A stretch of DNA of 64,000 nt, taken from NCBI GenBank assembly GCA_003818285.1, contig RPRB01000004.1, forward strand, positions 1-64,000, in the 5' to 3' direction. Below the pieces are notes generated by a model. That model was not told where the DNA came from. It did not search any database and worked only from the letters and a program-made list of their open reading frames with translations. Every line of letters starts with the position of its first letter. Position 1 is the stretch's first letter. Of this stretch, positions 13,074-42,387 are shown one piece after another. Source of the DNA: Myxococcaceae bacterium (GTDB lineage: Bacteria; Myxococcota; Myxococcia; Myxococcales; Myxococcaceae). The position numbers were made by a program, and so were the translations under genes.

Positions 13074-13505
13074 TCATCCGCCGGCCGCGTCCAGCAGGTC
13101 GGCGGCGCGGGCCGTCGGCGCGGCGACCAGCGCCCGGACCAGCGCTCGCATCCGCGCCAGCTCGAAGGGCTTGGTGAGGAAGGCCGCGCCCAGCGCCTCG
13201 GCCCGCGGCACGTCCGCCGGCTCGAGGAACGCCCCCATGAGGATGACGCCCAGGCCGGGCTCGCGGCGCTGGATCTCCTCCACCGCCTCCAGCCCGCTCC
13301 GCACCGGCATCGACAGGTCGCTCAGCACCACCGTCCGTCCGTTGCGCCCCGGGGGAAGCGCCGCGTGCGCCACCACCAGCTGCTCGCCGTCGGGAACCTC
13401 GAGCACCCGGTGCCCGTCCTTGCGCAGGACCGAGGCGAGGAGAAAGCGCAGCGCACCGTCGTCCTCGGCCAGCAGCACCCAGCGCTCGTCACTCCCGTTC
13501 TCCAC
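13074..13505 (-). CDS. single-domain response regulator (receiver)
   Basis: VLLAEDDGALR, phospho-Asp VVLSDLSMP, K in FLTKPFE; switch Thr/Ser replaced (VILMGAF). Confidence 0.85.
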   Translation of the reverse strand: MENGSDERWVLLAEDDGALRFLLASVLRKDGHRVLEVPDGEQLVVAHAALPPGRNGRTVVLSDLSMPVRSGLEAVEEIQRREPGLGVILMGAFLEPADVPRAEALGAAFLTKPFELARMRALVRALVAAPTARAADLLDAAGG

Positions 13506-13642
13506 GCGGAGTCACATGCTAGCGCGCTGCGCCGCGAGCCGAGAGAGGACGACCTTCCGGGTCCCGGCAGGGTGCCGCGAAGCGTCAACCCACTTTGTTG
13601 CGAGCACTGTCCGGTGGCGTGCGACAGTGTCCGACCCAGCCG

Positions 13643-14557
13643 ATGCGCACCTTCCTGGTGGTGAACCCCGAGAGCGCGGGCGGAGCGACCGGCCGACGCT
13701 GGCCGGAGATCCGTGCCGAGGTCGTGCGCGCGCTCGGAGACGGCGCCGAGCACGCCTTCACCGAGCGCCCGATGCACGCCGCCGCGCTCACCGCCGAGGC
13801 GCTCCGCAACGGCTTCCGCCGCATCGTCGCGGTGGGAGGCGACGGCACCCTCAACGAGGTGGTGAACGGGTTCTTCCAGGCAGGCTCCATCCCTCCGGAC
13901 GCGTGCCTCGCCCTGGTCCCCCGCGGGACCGGCGGAGACTTCCGGAGGACCTTCGGGCTCAACGGCTCCCTCCGCGAGAGCTGTTCCCGGCTGAAGGGGG
14001 ACGTGCGTCCCCTCGACGTCGGCCGCCTCAGCTTCACCCGGCCCGACGGCAGCCCCGGCGAGCGGTACTTCGTGAACGTGGCGAGCTTCGGCGTCAGCGG
14101 CCAGGTGGACCGCGCGGTCAACTCGGGGACCAAGGCGCTCGGCGGGAAGGTGAGCTTCTTCCTCGCCAGCGTCCGCACCCTCCTCGGCTGGCGCGACCAG
14201 GCAGTCCGCATCCGGGTGGATGGCGGACCCGAGGAGTCGCTGGCCATCACCACCGTGGCCATCGCCAACGGCCAGTACTTCGGAGGCGGGATGCGCGTGG
14301 CCCCGGAGGCCGACCCCTCCGACGGCCAGTTCGACGTCACCATCTGGAGCGGGTACCACCTCAAGGACTTCGCGCTGAAGTCGGCGTCGGTCTACGACGG
14401 GCGCCACGTGCGCTGGGCGGGCACCCGCACCCTCCGCTGCCGGCGGCTGGAGGCAGCGAGCGACGAGGAGGTCCTGCTCGACGTCGACGGTGAGCAGCCG
14501 GGGCGGCTGCCGGCGAGCTTCGAGCTGCTTCCCGGGGCCCTGCGGATCCAGGTCTAG
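13643..14557 (+). CDS. diacylglycerol kinase / lipid kinase family protein (DAGKc, YegS-like)
   Basis: VNPESAGGATGRRWPEI, VAVGGDGTLNEVVNGF, PRGTGGDFRRTFGL. Confidence 0.9.
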   Translation: MRTFLVVNPESAGGATGRRWPEIRAEVVRALGDGAEHAFTERPMHAAALTAEALRNGFRRIVAVGGDGTLNEVVNGFFQAGSIPPDACLALVPRGTGGDFRRTFGLNGSLRESCSRLKGDVRPLDVGRLSFTRPDGSPGERYFVNVASFGVSGQVDRAVNSGTKALGGKVSFFLASVRTLLGWRDQAVRIRVDGGPEESLAITTVAIANGQYFGGGMRVAPEADPSDGQFDVTIWSGYHLKDFALKSASVYDGRHVRWAGTRTLRCRRLEAASDEEVLLDVDGEQPGRLPASFELLPGALRIQV

Positions 14558-17028
14558 ACGGGTGACGACAGCGCCCCGGGGAGCCGCACATGGAAGCTGC
14601 TCCCGACCCCCGGAATCGACTCGAGCGAGAGGCGGCCCTGGAGCTGCCCCACCAGCTCGCGGACGATGGCCAGCCCCAGGCCCACGCCGGGAGTGTGCTT
14701 GCGGAGAAGCGGCTCGAGCTGCACGAACGGCTCGAAGATCCGCTCCTGCGCCTCGGAAGCGATGCCCCGCCCGGTGTCACGGACCGAGAGCACTGCGCCC
14801 GGGCCGTCCCCCAGAAGGCCCACCGTCACCGAGCCCGCCTCGGTGTACTTGATGGCGTTGGAGACCAGGTTGTTCACCACCAGCCGGAGCAGCCGCGGAT
14901 CGCTCGTCACCGTGACCGGATCGGCCGCCTCGAGCCGGAGGGCGAGCTGGCGCAACTCCGCCTCCGGCCGGAGCTCGTCGAGGACATCCTCGAGCAGCGT
15001 CCGGAGCTCCACCGGCTGCGGCGCGAGGACGAGACGGCCGGACTGGAGGCGGGCGTACTCCAGCAAGGTCATCATCCGATCCTCGAAGCGCTGGGTGGTG
15101 GCGTCGAGGCGCCGGATGGCGTCCGCAGGTGGCGTGACGCTCCGCTGGACGGCGCGCACCAGCCGGTCCACCTGCAGCCGGACGGCGGTGAGCGGGGTGC
15201 GGAGCTCGTGGGAGACGAGGTTGAGGAAGGCCGATTTCGCCTCGCTCGCCGTGAGCGCCCTGTCCCGGGCGACCTCCAGCGTGGCGAGCGCCGTCTCCAG
15301 CCGGCGCTTGTGGTCCGCCAGATGCCGCGCCAGCTCCGCCAGGCTGGCCCCGCCGGAGGCCACCTCGCCCCGGAGCAGGTCCGAGGCGCGCTTGGCCTCG
15401 AGCAGGTTGCGCGCCCGGGCGCGGAGCTCCTCCGCCGCGAACGGCTTCACCAGGTAGTCCTGCGCGCCGTCCCGGAGCAGCCGGGCCCGGGTCTCCACGT
15501 CCGCCCGGGCGGTGAGGATCAGCACCGGTACCGTGGCCGTCGCCGGCCGGGATCGGAGCGTCTGCACCAGGGTGTCGCCGGAGAGGTCGGGCATCATCAG
15601 ATCCGTCACCACCAGGTCCGGCGGGCTGGCCAGCGCGGCCGAGACCCCCGCCTGGCCGCCGATGGCCACCTGGACCGCCGCGTCCGGGGCCAGCACGTCC
15701 GCAACGTGGCGCCCCATCTCCGGGTTGTCCTCCACCACCAAGACCGCCGGCTTCCCCTCGGGGGACTGAGCCGGGACGCCCCTCGCCTCGGGCGGTGGGC
15801 TCAGCTCGCCGGCCATCTGCTCCGCGGCCGCGCTGGCCTCGGTCCGGACCGGGCGGGCCCCGGGCTGCACCGGGGGAAGCGGGAGCACGCAACGGAAGAG
15901 CGCGCCTCCCTCCGGGGCGGTGGTCACGGTGAGCTCGCCCCCGTGCGCGCGGGTCAGGTCGCGGGCCAGCGCCAGGCCGATGCCCACGCCGCCGAAGCGC
16001 CGGGTGTTTCCCAGGTCGAGCTGCCGGAAGCGCTCGAACACCGCCTCGCGCTGCGGCTCGGGGATGCCGGGCCCGCTGTCGGCCACCTCCAGGACCGCGC
16101 GCGCCGGCTGGACGTCGTCCTCGCGAAGCGAGACGCGCACCGTGCCCTGGTGGGGAGTGAACTTGAAGGCGTTGGACAGGAGGTTCAGCACGATGCGCAG
16201 CACCCGCGAGGGGTCCAGCGCCCCGACCATCCGCGGCGGGGTGTCCACCCGAATCTCGAGCCCCCGCTCCCGGGCGAGCGAGCGGAACCCCTCCACGGCA
16301 TCGCGGACCGTCGCGGCGAGGTCCAGCGGCGAGCGCTCGAGCTCGGTGCGGCCCGCCTCGAGCCTGGACACCTCCAGGAGGTCATCGACCTCGCGCAGAA
16401 GCTGACGGGCGTTCCGCTGGACGATGCGCAGCTCCGCGCGGTGCTCCCCGCTCAGCTCGGGCGCGGCGAGCAGCGTCTCGGTGGGCCCGAGGATGAGGGC
16501 CAGCGGCGTGCGCAGCTCGTGGCTGACGTTGGCGAAGAACTGCGTCTTGAGCGCCTCGAGCTCCCGTGCCCGGTCGTACAGGGTGGCCAGCTCCTTCACC
16601 ACCGCCTCGAGCTCGATGCCCCGCTCGTGTGCCGCCCGCGCCCCTCGGGCCAGCGCGACGGCCCGCGGCACGAGCGGGGGCAAAAGGAAGGCGGTCCCCA
16701 CCGAGGCGGCGGCGGTGATCGCCCGCACGCCGCCGTCCACCCAGTACAGTGGCTTCCAGATGGTCACCACGTCCATGAGGTGGGTGACGCCACAGCTCAG
16801 GATGAAGGCGCCGAACGCGAGGTAGATGAGCTTGAAGGGGATGTCGCGCACCCGGCGGACCAGGACCGTCAGGGCGAAGGCGATGCCCGCGTAGGCGACG
16901 CCGATCGCGCCGTTGGTCAGGACCTGAAGCCAGACCAGCCCCGGCTCCCACCGGTAGCAGTGCCCGTGGGGCATGAACCACTCCGAAGAGAAGATCTCGG
17001 TCAGGTTGGGCATGGCGCCGGGGAGCAT
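14554..17028 (-). CDS. hybrid sensor histidine kinase: ETR1-like transmembrane domain - HK - REC - HK
   Basis: N-terminal TM region with FGAFILSCGVTHLMDVVTIW; HisKA VSHELRTPLA + HATPase; REC DLMMPD; second HisKA VSHELRTPLT + HATPase GVGLGLAIV. Start chosen at 17028 (17013 also possible); the ORF track runs on to 17991 in a shadow frame. Confidence 0.9.
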   Translation of the reverse strand: MLPGAMPNLTEIFSSEWFMPHGHCYRWEPGLVWLQVLTNGAIGVAYAGIAFALTVLVRRVRDIPFKLIYLAFGAFILSCGVTHLMDVVTIWKPLYWVDGGVRAITAAASVGTAFLLPPLVPRAVALARGARAAHERGIELEAVVKELATLYDRARELEALKTQFFANVSHELRTPLALILGPTETLLAAPELSGEHRAELRIVQRNARQLLREVDDLLEVSRLEAGRTELERSPLDLAATVRDAVEGFRSLARERGLEIRVDTPPRMVGALDPSRVLRIVLNLLSNAFKFTPHQGTVRVSLREDDVQPARAVLEVADSGPGIPEPQREAVFERFRQLDLGNTRRFGGVGIGLALARDLTRAHGGELTVTTAPEGGALFRCVLPLPPVQPGARPVRTEASAAAEQMAGELSPPPEARGVPAQSPEGKPAVLVVEDNPEMGRHVADVLAPDAAVQVAIGGQAGVSAALASPPDLVVTDLMMPDLSGDTLVQTLRSRPATATVPVLILTARADVETRARLLRDGAQDYLVKPFAAEELRARARNLLEAKRASDLLRGEVASGGASLAELARHLADHKRRLETALATLEVARDRALTASEAKSAFLNLVSHELRTPLTAVRLQVDRLVRAVQRSVTPPADAIRRLDATTQRFEDRMMTLLEYARLQSGRLVLAPQPVELRTLLEDVLDELRPEAELRQLALRLEAADPVTVTSDPRLLRLVVNNLVSNAIKYTEAGSVTVGLLGDGPGAVLSVRDTGRGIASEAQERIFEPFVQLEPLLRKHTPGVGLGLAIVRELVGQLQGRLSLESIPGVGSSFHVRLPGALSSPV

Positions 17029-17063: not shown

Positions 17064-19772
17064 TCAGCTCAGCCAGAAGTACGCGGTGCCCACCAGGGCG
17101 CGCCGGTCCACCACCTTGCCTCGCGCGGTGCGCTCGGCCAGGGAGCGGTCCTTGAGGCCGTAGCGGGTCTCCTCCTCGTTGCGGAGGGCAGCCAGACGGC
17201 GCCGGTGCTCGCGCTCCGCCCGCTCGATGGCCGCCCGCGCCCGGGCCCGCTCCGCCCCATCCTCGACTCCCACGAGACGCGCCCGGGCCTCCTCCCAGCT
17301 CGCCCGCGCCCGGGCCAGCGCCTCGCGCGGCTCGAGCAGGCACTCCTCGGCGTAGCGATCCGCCTGCTCCCGGAGTCGATCGAGCTCGTGCTGGTTGCGC
17401 CGCTCCGCCTCGCGGAGCAGGCCCTCCCGCGCCGCGGACAGCGCCCGCTCCTGGGCGTGAGCGACGGAGATGGCCGCCGGCGGCCGGAGCTGTCCCTCGC
17501 GTGCCGGCAGGCGGGCGAGTAGCGCCGCGTCCTCGGGCGGCAGCGCCCGGAACCCGTCCCGCTCCCTGAGGAGCACCAGGTGCAGGAGACGCTCGTCGGG
17601 GAGCAGTCCCGTCGCCTCGAAGCGATAGACGAACCACCAGCCCTCGCTTCCCGCCAGCCGGGCGAGCCGCGAGGGGAGGGTGGAGGCGTCGAGCTGGAGC
17701 CAGTGCACTCCATCGGCCGGGCTCGCGCGCACCGCGCCTGCCGCGACGCTCACGGTGCGGCCGCGGGCTTCCTTCCCCAGGACGTGACGGGTGAAGGCGC
17801 GGGCGTTCCGCCGGTGCCGGTCCACCGCCGCCTCGGCCTCCTCCCCGGCCATCCGGAGTCTCCGGCGCACCTCGCCGTCGAATCGTTCGAGGAGCAGGGA
17901 GCGGGCCTGCGTCATCCGCGCGTCGATGCGGTGCTCGAGGTCGTCGCGGAGCGCATCGAACGCGCGGGCGATCTCCACGGTGGACCGGCACGACTGGTAG
18001 ATGTCCAGGACGCGCTTCTCGAAGTCGATCCCGGTCTCCAGCGCCCCGAGGATCTCGTCCGAGGCGCCGAACACCCCGTCGAAGAGGTGGAGCTTCCGCT
18101 CCAGCAGCTCGTACAGCCGGGCGTCGGCGGCGTTCTGGCGGTTGAGGAAGTTGAGCACCAGGACGTCCCGTTGCTGCCCGTAGCGATGGCAGCGGCCGAT
18201 GCGCTGCTCGATGCGCTGCGGGTTCCAGGGCAGGTCGTAGTTCACGACCAGGTTGCAGAACTGGAGATTGAGCACCTCGGCCCCGGCCTCTGTCGAGAGG
18301 AGGATCTCGGTGCGCTCGCGGAACTCGTCCACCAGGGCCTGACGCTCCTCAGGCGTCCCCGCGTCGCCGGAGAGGAGCGAGATCCGCCCGGCCCAGCCGT
18401 GCGCGGCGAGCAGGTCGGCGAGGTAGCCCTGCGTCCGCCGCGACTCGGTGAAGACCACCGCCTTCTCCGGCCACTGGTGCGCGCGGGCGACGGTGAAGAG
18501 CCGATCCAGCGCCCGCTTCAGCGCCTCGCCCTTGGCGTTCACCCGGATCGATTCGGCGCGCGCGGCGTAGCGCTCCAGCTCGAACGCCTCCGCCTCGAGG
18601 GTGGCCGGGGCGGGAAGGGTGGGGCGGCCGGGCTCGTCCTCCCAGGCCTCGGCCTCCTCGGCCCAGGCGCTCGCCTCCTCGGGCTCGAAGGCCCCCCTCT
18701 CCCCGGCGCCGCGCCTCGCCGCGTCGATGCGCCGGCGCAGGCTCTCGGCCAGGCGCCGCAGGGTGGGCGCGATGGCGTACGTCGAGGAGGCGAGGAGCTT
18801 CCGGTAGACGAGGGTGAGAAGCGTCCTCTTCCCCGGCTCGATCGCCGCCGTCTCGCTGCGGCGGAGGTACTCGGACACCTCGTCGTAGAGCGACTGCTCC
18901 TCGTCGGAGGGCGCGAAGTCCTCCACCATGCTCCGGCGATTGGTGAAGCGGACGTACTCCCGCACCTGCCGGCGCAGTGTGCGGTGCACCACCGGGGAGA
19001 GGCGCTCGCGGAGCTCCTGGACCGGCCCGTCGGGAAGGCCGCCCACCTCGGGGTCCACCGAGTAGCGGCTCTTGAAGGCGTGCTCCGGGCCGAGGATCTG
19101 CTCGTCGAGGAAGGACATCAACCCGAACAGCTCCATCAGCTCGTTCTGGAGCGGAGTGGCGGTGAGGAGCAGCTTCGGCCGGTCGCCCAGCGCGTCCCGG
19201 AGGGCCCGGGCGATCTTGTTCCCCGCCCGGTGCGCGTTCCGGAGCCGGTGCGCCTCGTCGATGACCACCAGGTCCCAGGGGAGCTGCCGGATCTGCTCGG
19301 CCCGTCCCGCGGCGAAGGGGTGGCTGGCGATGACCGGCACCGGCTGCTGGAAGGGGTTGTGCCCCGTGCGCCCGGCCCGCCCGTCGACGATCACCGACTC
19401 GAGCTCGAACTTGTCCTGGAGCTCCGCCTGCCACTGCGCGCGCAAGGTGGCGGGGGTGAGCACCAGGACCCGCCCCTTCCCCTCGGCCACCAGCTGGGCG
19501 AGGACGATGCCTGCCTCGATGGTCTTCCCCAGCCCCACCTCGTCGGCGAGCATGCATCCGCCCCGCGGGAGCGAGTCGAGCGCGAACGCCGCCGCCTCCA
19601 CCTGATGCGGATTGAGGTCGACCCGCGCCTCCGAGAGCGCCGCGGCGAGCCGGTCCGTGGCCCGGCCTGCCTTGAGCGCCAGCTCCTCGGCCAGCAGCCG
19701 CTGATGAAAACGCGTGAGCGGGGTCTCCCCCGCGAGCTTCTCCCGGACCGGCTCCGCCACTCCACCCCTCAT
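17064..19772 (-). CDS. SNF2/RapA-like DEAD/DEAH-box helicase
   Basis: DEVGLGKTIEAGIVLAQL (Walker A), VIDEAHRLRN (DEAH), LLLTATPLQN, SNF2 C-terminal NYDLPWNPQRIEQRIGRCHRYGQ. Confidence 0.93.
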   Translation of the reverse strand: MRGGVAEPVREKLAGETPLTRFHQRLLAEELALKAGRATDRLAAALSEARVDLNPHQVEAAAFALDSLPRGGCMLADEVGLGKTIEAGIVLAQLVAEGKGRVLVLTPATLRAQWQAELQDKFELESVIVDGRAGRTGHNPFQQPVPVIASHPFAAGRAEQIRQLPWDLVVIDEAHRLRNAHRAGNKIARALRDALGDRPKLLLTATPLQNELMELFGLMSFLDEQILGPEHAFKSRYSVDPEVGGLPDGPVQELRERLSPVVHRTLRRQVREYVRFTNRRSMVEDFAPSDEEQSLYDEVSEYLRRSETAAIEPGKRTLLTLVYRKLLASSTYAIAPTLRRLAESLRRRIDAARRGAGERGAFEPEEASAWAEEAEAWEDEPGRPTLPAPATLEAEAFELERYAARAESIRVNAKGEALKRALDRLFTVARAHQWPEKAVVFTESRRTQGYLADLLAAHGWAGRISLLSGDAGTPEERQALVDEFRERTEILLSTEAGAEVLNLQFCNLVVNYDLPWNPQRIEQRIGRCHRYGQQRDVLVLNFLNRQNAADARLYELLERKLHLFDGVFGASDEILGALETGIDFEKRVLDIYQSCRSTVEIARAFDALRDDLEHRIDARMTQARSLLLERFDGEVRRRLRMAGEEAEAAVDRHRRNARAFTRHVLGKEARGRTVSVAAGAVRASPADGVHWLQLDASTLPSRLARLAGSEGWWFVYRFEATGLLPDERLLHLVLLRERDGFRALPPEDAALLARLPAREGQLRPPAAISVAHAQERALSAAREGLLREAERRNQHELDRLREQADRYAEECLLEPREALARARASWEEARARLVGVEDGAERARARAAIERAEREHRRRLAALRNEEETRYGLKDRSLAERTARGKVVDRRALVGTAYFWLS

Positions 19773-40642: not shown

Positions 40643-42387
40643 GGCTGCTCGGGCACGTCCTCTCCCCCAGGGACGTGCGCGCGCTGCCGGAGCACGAGCT
40701 ACCCGCGCTGTGCGCCGAGCTCCGGGAGGAGATCATCTCCATCTGCGGCCAGGTGGGCGGGCATCTCGGCGCCTCGCTGGGCGCGGTGGAGCTCATCGTC
40801 GGGCTCCACCGGGTGTTCCACGCTCCCGAGGACGACCTGGTCTTCGACGTGGGACACCAGGCCTACGCGCACAAGCTGCTCACCGGCCGCGCGCCCCGGA
40901 TGCACACCCTCCGGCAGGAGGGCGGGGTCGCGCCGTTCCTCGATCCCCGCGAGAGCCCCTTCGACGCCTTCCCCGCCGGCCACGCCTGCACCTCGGTGAG
41001 CGTGGCGCTGGGCATGGCACAGGCGCGCGCACGGACCGGAGCGCCCGGCCGGGCGGTGGCCATCGTCGGCGACGGCGCGCTCACCGGGGGGCTGACCTTC
41101 GAGGGGCTGAACGACGCGGGTGCCAGCGGGCTGCCGCTGGTGGTGGTGCTGAACGACAACGGAATGTCGATCTCCGCCAACGTGGGCGCGGTGGCCCGGA
41201 TGCTGGCCGGCCCAGGGGCGCGGACCTTCTTCGAGGCGCTGGGCTTCACCTACCTCGGTCCGGTGAACGGGCACGAGCTGGGCGAGCTCCTTCCGGCGCT
41301 GACCGAGGCGCGCCGGAGCCGCCGGCCGGTGCTGGTCCACGTCCGGACCGAGAAGGGGCGGGGGCTCGCCGAGGCCGAGGCGGACGTCGCCACCCGCGGC
41401 CACGCGATGGGCCCGTACGAGATGCGCGACGGGAAGCTGGTTCGCAGCCGCCACGGGCAGCCCACCTGGTCCGACGCGGTGGCCGACGCGCTCGGCCGGG
41501 CGATGGAGCGAGACCCGCGGGTGGTGGTGGTGACGCCCGCGATGCTGGAGGGCTCCTCGCTCACCGGACTCGTCCGGCGCTTCGGGCCCCGGGTGCACGA
41601 CGCGGGCATCGCCGAGCAGCACGCGGTGACGCTGGCTGCCGGGCTCGCCGCGCGGGGGATGCGGCCGGTGGTGTGCATCTACAGCACCTTCCTCCAGCGC
41701 GCGCTGGACCAGCTCATCCACGACGTGGCGCTGCCGGGGCTGCCGGTCACCCTCGCCATCGATCGTGCCGGGCTGGTCGGCGCGGACGGGGCGACGCACC
41801 AGGGCACGTACGACCTGGCCTTTCTGCGGCCGCTCCCCGGGCTGCGGCTCTACGTGCCGACACTGGCAGAGGACGTGGACGCGGTGCTGGCGACGGCGCT
41901 GTCCGGGCCCGGGCCGGCGGCGTTCCGGTTCCCCCGCGGGACGCTCCCGACCACCCCGGCGTCGATCCACGTCGAGCCGGGGCCGGTGAGCGGTGCGCGC
42001 TGGCTCCGGCGCCCGGACGGTGCGGTCGCGGCGATCGTCACGCTGGGGCCGCTCGGGCTCGCGGCGCTCGAGGCGGCCGCGTCGCTCGACTTCCCGACGG
42101 CGGTGCTCGACGTGCTGGCGCTCGCGCCGCTCGACGTCGAGAAGGTGCTCCAGGCCTGTGCCACGGGGAACGTCGTGACGGTGGAGGAGGGGACGACCCA
42201 TGGCGGCCTGGGCAGCGCGGTGCTCGAGCTGCTCGCGGCGCGCGGGCTGACGGCCCGGGTGAGGACGCTCGGGCTCCCCGACGCCCCGGTGCCGCACGGG
42301 GACGCGCGCGCGCAGCGCCGCGCCCTGGGTCTCTCGCCAGAGGGCATCGCCAGCGCCGTGCGCTCGCTCGTCGCTGGCCCCCGGTAG
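40639..42387 (+). CDS. dxs: 1-deoxy-D-xylulose-5-phosphate synthase
   Basis: CGQVGGHLGASLGAVELIVGLHRVF, DVGHQAYAHKLLTGR, AIVGDGALTGGLTFEGLND; GTGA overlap with ispA. Confidence 0.94.
   Translation: MRLLGHVLSPRDVRALPEHELPALCAELREEIISICGQVGGHLGASLGAVELIVGLHRVFHAPEDDLVFDVGHQAYAHKLLTGRAPRMHTLRQEGGVAPFLDPRESPFDAFPAGHACTSVSVALGMAQARARTGAPGRAVAIVGDGALTGGLTFEGLNDAGASGLPLVVVLNDNGMSISANVGAVARMLAGPGARTFFEALGFTYLGPVNGHELGELLPALTEARRSRRPVLVHVRTEKGRGLAEAEADVATRGHAMGPYEMRDGKLVRSRHGQPTWSDAVADALGRAMERDPRVVVVTPAMLEGSSLTGLVRRFGPRVHDAGIAEQHAVTLAAGLAARGMRPVVCIYSTFLQRALDQLIHDVALPGLPVTLAIDRAGLVGADGATHQGTYDLAFLRPLPGLRLYVPTLAEDVDAVLATALSGPGPAAFRFPRGTLPTTPASIHVEPGPVSGARWLRRPDGAVAAIVTLGPLGLAALEAAASLDFPTAVLDVLALAPLDVEKVLQACATGNVVTVEEGTTHGGLGSAVLELLAARGLTARVRTLGLPDAPVPHGDARAQRRALGLSPEGIASAVRSLVAGPR

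What the first reader, a model, noticed from the sequence alone, without database searches (positions are those of the whole stretch)
16610..17013. Ethylene-receptor-like (ETR1-type) membrane sensor on a bacterial hybrid kinase, with Asn at the Asp25 position
The N-terminal TM region (...NGAIGVAYAGIAFALTVLVRRVRDIPFKLIYLAFGAFILSCGVTHLMDVVTIW...) closely resembles plant ETR1 (...SDFFIAIAYFSIPLELIYF...FGAFIVLCGATHLINLWTF...). Anchoring on the Cys, ungapped spacing puts Tyr at Y32, Ile at I62, Cys at C65 and His at H69, the copper/ethylene-site residues. Position 25 is Asn instead of Asp. The rest of the protein is HK-REC-HK with no GAF domain. It may sense ethylene, another small ligand through copper, or a redox signal. 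ETR1-like domains are known in some bacteria; this substitution and architecture look unusual.
Basis: partly seen in the sequence, partly recalled or inferred. Interest (0 to 1): 0.72.

Follow-up and report, generated by a model that had tools for sequence, protein, structure and literature searches.

The report
Ethylene-receptor-like kinase with altered site
A myxobacterium carries a membrane sensor kinase of the same family as the plant ethylene receptor; its copper-holding residues are intact but two of the seven residues plants need for ethylene binding are changed, so it may sense ethylene only weakly or sense something related.

Summary
A minus-strand gene (17013..14554, 819 aa) starts with a clear Pfam ETR1_N domain (PF25487, E=5e-31), then kinase, receiver, kinase; no GAF. 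Aligned without gaps to ETR1 through both copper residues: Y32, I35, I62, C65, H69 kept; D25 is Asn. The Asn is real: a second genome of the genus has the same N25/A36/R91. It is not unique. In 269 bacterial domains position 25 is D in 225, N in 24, H in 11. The architecture is ordinary: all ten full-length orthologues read have it. The window belongs to a small clade (window, L002, L132, L134, L135, L031), all N25/R91. Positions 25 and 91 covary strongly (rank 2 of 4,753 column pairs), fitting a rewired D25-K91 bridge. Published work (read in a review) reports that Asp-to-Asn ETR1 still functions with about 100-fold lower ethylene affinity, and that natural variants exist. Best reading: a Cu(I)-dependent ethylene-class sensor kinase with altered affinity; ligand untested. 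A modest variant of a known family.

The parts
14554..17013 (-). Hybrid histidine kinase gene, 819 aa, ETR1_N - HK - REC - HK (ATG at 17013; an in-frame ATG 15 bases upstream is possible)
   Evidence: ORF and translation, Pfam
16651..16938 (-). ETR1_N (PF25487) sensor domain, residues 26-121
   Evidence: hmmscan E=5.2e-31; genome search E=5e-32
16852..16944 (-). Predicted TM helix 1, residues 24-54, carries N34 (=D25), Y41 (=Y32), I44 (=I35), A45 (=P36)
   Evidence: AlphaFold2 model, mean pLDDT 91; coordinates
16912..16914 (-). Asn codon (AAC) at ETR1 position 25
16879..16881 (-).
16756..16833 (-). Predicted TM helix 2, residues 61-86, carries I71 (=I62), C74 (=C65), H78 (=H69)
16792..16794 (-). 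Cys at ETR1 C65, Cu(I) ligand
   Evidence: 251 of 269 domains have Cys
16780..16782 (-). His at ETR1 H69, Cu(I) ligand
   Evidence: 256 of 269 domains have His
16684..16746 (-). Predicted TM helix 3, residues 90-110, carries D93 (=87) and R97 (=K91)
16723..16725 (-). Arg at ETR1 K91, predicted partner of position 25
16735..16737 (-). Asp at ETR1 position 87, four residues before R91; acidic in 32 of 37 non-D25 domains against 37 of 205 D25 domains
16597..16674 (-). Signalling helix linking sensor to first kinase, residues 114-139
   Evidence: model
16351..16548 (-). HisKA 1, residues 156-221
15874..16215 (-). HATPase_c 1, residues 267-380
15412..15744 (-). Receiver domain, residues 424-534
14578..15252 (-). 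Second HisKA/HATPase module, about residues 588-812 (limits set from motifs)

Best explanation
A membrane-bound hybrid histidine kinase of a Myxococcaceae bacterium whose N-terminal three-helix ETR1_N domain most likely holds Cu(I) through C74/H78 (ETR1 C65/H69) and reports binding of a small soft ligand, ethylene or a similar small molecule, by changing autophosphorylation of the two kinase modules and phosphotransfer to the internal receiver. It belongs to a clade in which the helix 1-helix 3 polar contact (D25-K91 in ETR1) has been rewired to N25-R91, with an acidic residue at 87 and P36 already lost. By analogy with Asp-to-Asn ETR1, affinity for ethylene is probably much lower than in plants. 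Shown here: homology, intact Cu-ligand residues and catalytic motifs, clade-wide N25/R91, covariation of 25 and 91. Inferred: copper binding, ligand, direction of signalling. Output partner unknown: no conserved neighbour gene; one orphan receiver gene lies 1 kb away.
For: ETR1_N E=5e-31. Cys and His kept in all six members of the window's N25/R91 clade and in 20 of 24 N25 domains overall. Clade window+L002+L132+L134+L135 SH-aLRT 93, with L031 84. 25-91 ranks 2 of 4,753 pairs by corrected mutual information, 5 of 4,753 when only Cys/His-positive rows are used. K91 lost on the same side in 11 of 15 independent pairs, opposite in 0.7 (sign p=0.006 on the best tree). AlphaFold model puts 25, 65/69 and 91 in three separate confident helices. 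Literature: D25 is predicted to position H69 and to bond K91 (PMC11819568); Asp-to-Asn ETR1 is functional with about 100-fold lower affinity (PMC13012798); bacterial relatives SynEtr1 and AzoEtr1 bind ethylene.
Against: P36 is one of the seven residues reported as essential for ethylene binding in ETR1 by alanine scanning, and it is Ala here (S/A/T across the clade and S/A in its D25 relatives). No member of this clade has been tested in the papers I could read. No ethylene-related or copper gene next to it. The phylogenetic signal of 25/91 coupling weakens to 11 pairs, p=0.07, when only Cys/His-positive rows are used, and few branches of the domain tree are firmly supported.
Confidence: 0.5

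Rival explanations
1. The domain binds Cu(I) but is not an ethylene receptor: it senses copper status, redox state, or another Cu(I) ligand such as CO or another small gas or olefin.
For: Cu ligands conserved while two ethylene-binding residues (D25, P36) are lost; D25-bearing myxobacterial relatives also lack P36; no ethylene-linked context found.
Against: Y32, I35 and I62, also needed for ethylene in ETR1, are kept; Asp-to-Asn ETR1 still binds ethylene.
Confidence: 0.33
2. The sensor has lost ligand binding and serves only as a membrane anchor and dimerisation module.
For: Two of seven ETR1 binding residues changed; some clearly degenerate family members go further and lose Cys or His.
Against: C65, H69, Y32, I35, I62 unchanged throughout the clade, across genomes only about 50% identical in the kinase part; a decayed site would be expected to lose them.
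Confidence: 0.12
3. Chance resemblance or wrong register of the Cys/His relative to the membrane site.
For: None found.
Against: E=5e-31, ungapped alignment, AlphaFold helices 24-54, 61-86, 90-110 with Cys/His within helix 2.
Confidence: 0.01

Closest known systems
Plant ETR1 ethylene receptor (Arabidopsis)
   Same: ETR1_N sensor; Y32, I35, I62, C65, H69; coupled to histidine kinase and receiver
   Different: D25N, P36A, K91R; no GAF; a second kinase after the receiver; bacterial PHGHC stretch before helix 1 instead of the plant CxC
SynEtr1 (slr1212, Synechocystis) and AzoEtr1 (Azospirillum), proven bacterial ethylene receptors
   Same: Same N-terminal sensor family on a bacterial kinase
   Different: AzoEtr1 is reported to keep all seven binding residues; both bind ethylene directly and carry PAS or cyanobacteriochrome modules
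D25/K91 ETR1_N-HK-REC-HK kinases of Myxococcaceae and Anaeromyxobacter (L299-L303, L305, L306; sensor domains L003-L027)
   Same: Same architecture and length, roughly 43-52% identity in the sensor, S or A at position 36
   Different: Keep D25 and K91
N25/R91 clade members L132/L295, L134/L296, L135/L297 and L031
   Same: N25, R91, D87, non-Pro 36; the first three have the same architecture
   Different: Genomes outside the window's genus; L031 reads as a shorter, different kinase

Membership tests
ETR1_N (PF25487) sensor domain family | Profile match over the gathering score | tested here: met
   107 bits against 27
ETR1_N (PF25487) sensor domain family | Three transmembrane helices | tested here: met
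   AlphaFold2 helices 24-54, 61-86, 90-110, mean pLDDT 91
Cu(I) ethylene receptor (ETR1 type) | Cu(I) ligands C65 and H69 | tested here: met
   C74 and H78 in ungapped alignment
Cu(I) ethylene receptor (ETR1 type) | All seven residues required for ethylene binding (D25, Y32, I35, P36, I62, C65, H69) | tested here: not met
   D25 is Asn and P36 is Ala; five of seven kept
Cu(I) ethylene receptor (ETR1 type) | Saturable ethylene binding with copper | not testable with these tools
   needs a radioligand assay
Hybrid histidine kinase | HisKA/HATPase with intact H, N, G boxes and receiver Asp | tested here: met

The most novel reading that the evidence does not exclude
The N25/R91/D87 clade without P36 is a copper-dependent gas or olefin sensor with a rewired helix 1-helix 3 switch that has shifted to a ligand other than ethylene or to a much higher concentration range: a natural double mutant of the proposed D25-K91 signalling bridge.
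Probability: 0.25. Interest if true: 0.6.

Novelty: new variant of a known kind. Interest (0 to 1): 0.35.

Why it matters
Bacterial ethylene sensing is demonstrated in only a few species. A natural clade in which both halves of the proposed D25-K91 bridge have changed together, while the copper ligands stay, is a ready test of which residues set ethylene affinity and which carry the signal. The 25-91 covariation across bacteria independently supports a contact that, in the papers read here, rests on modelling.

Tried and rejected
PDB sequence search with the domain and with a 50-row profile: no relative solved. Foldseek against PDB: no match better than E=1.2, so the model could not be compared with a solved ETR1 membrane domain. 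Neighbour genes as a functional clue: the SNF2-type helicase upstream is conserved only in the sister genome, and the neighbours of three orthologues scanned share nothing with it. The paired test restricted to firmly supported branches had only 4 pairs and cannot be significant. Acidic 87 with loss of D25 is strong as a count (odds ratio 29) but has only about 2.4 independent pairs, so it is a lead, not shown. Azhar et al. 2023 and Aman et al. 2025, the primary papers on Asp-to-Asn ETR1, are not held; their result is taken from a review. Papers on myxobacterial or deltaproteobacterial ethylene receptors: none found.

Full report
What is there. The gene lies on the minus strand, 17013..14554, 819 aa. 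Pfam gives ETR1_N 26-121 (E=5e-31), two HisKA/HATPase modules and a receiver between them, with no GAF or PAS. Motifs of both kinases and the receiver are intact. The genome, a 5.8 Mb draft, has one such domain. The closest named relative in genome contigs is a Myxococcaceae MAG (isolate Chersky_276; 83% identity in the domain).

Residues. Against AtETR1 the alignment is ungapped from helix 1 through C65/H69: D25 to N, Y32, I35, P36 to A, I62, C65, H69; K91 to R further on. Five of the seven residues named as essential for ethylene binding in ETR1 (PMC11819568; PMC6586836) are kept, including both copper ligands.

How unusual. I collected 269 non-redundant domains from named genome contigs and from profile searches of about 1,500 genomes. 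Position 25 is D in 225, N in 24, H in 11, S in 4, E in 2. The sampling is uneven, so the percentages are only a guide. The window's own genus is N25 in both genomes seen; other Myxococcaceae and Anaeromyxobacter have D25/K91 with S or A at 36. So P36 is missing across the group and the Asn is narrower.

Clade. On a domain tree built without columns 25 and 91, the window groups with L002, L132, L134 and L135 (SH-aLRT 93) and L031 (84); all six are N25/R91. L132, L134 and L135, read at full length as L295-L297, have the same ETR1_N-HK-REC-HK order as the window and as the D25/K91 relatives. A tree of the kinase parts alone also separates N25/R91 from D25/K91 proteins, with weak support (79/85). 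This fits descent of the whole protein.

Coupling of 25 and 91. D25 goes with K91 in 203 domains; N25 goes with R91 in 12, with L or M in 6 and with K in one. Corrected mutual information ranks 25-91 second of 4,753 pairs. On the best tree 15 independent pairs differ at 25; in about 11 of them K91 is lost on the same side and in 0.7 on the other (p=0.006). With only Cys/His-positive rows there are 11 pairs, 7 against 0.7, p=0.07. Many branches are weakly supported, so this is good but not conclusive evidence that the two positions change together. It agrees with the published proposal that D25 bonds K91. An acidic residue at 87 is frequent when D25 is absent (32 of 37 against 37 of 205), but this rests on few independent events.

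Structure. AlphaFold2 gives three helices at 24-54, 61-86 and 90-110 and a signalling helix 114-139, mean pLDDT 91. No solved homologue was found in the PDB copy.

Mechanism. The best reading is a Cu(I)-dependent sensor of the ETR1 type that signals through two kinases and a receiver. A review states that Asp-to-Asn ETR1 is functional with about 100-fold lower ethylene affinity and that natural variants exist at this position (PMC13012798). From memory, the primary abstract (Azhar et al. 2023) says Asn variants occur; I could not open it. N25 therefore does not exclude ethylene sensing; A36 makes it less likely at high affinity. Ligand and output remain untested.

Verdict. Neither the architecture nor the Asn is unique. 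What is added is the A36 and R91 changes, the clade, and the 25-91 covariation. Interest is moderate to low.

Noticed in passing
window 17064..19772 (-): SNF2-type helicase gene ends 50 bases upstream of the kinase on the same strand; the same order is kept in the sister genome (L304, 89% identity) but in no other orthologue locus examined.
   Followed up: yes
window 13074..13505 (-): Stand-alone receiver-domain gene about 1 kb beyond the kinase, separated by a convergent diacylglycerol-kinase-like gene (13595..14557 +); a possible but unproven phosphotransfer partner.
   Followed up: partly
window 40742..40833 (+): ARAGORN reports a tRNA with a four-base anticodon; Rfam does not support it and the sequence looks like ordinary coding DNA, so it is probably a false positive.
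   Followed up: yes
L232, L230, L243, L238, L233, L235, L236, L234, L249: ETR1_N domains in the order of the Nevskia genome (G195) have His at position 25 with L/M/V/T at 91 and an acidic residue at 87, keeping Cys65/His69: another rewired version of the site, perhaps with an extra metal ligand.
   Followed up: partly
A2 columns of window residues 14-22: Bacterial ETR1_N domains carry a conserved MPHGHCY.W stretch before helix 1 (H16, C19 and W22 invariant in 50 rows), absent from plant ETR1; role unknown, possibly dimer disulphide or metal handling.
   Followed up: no
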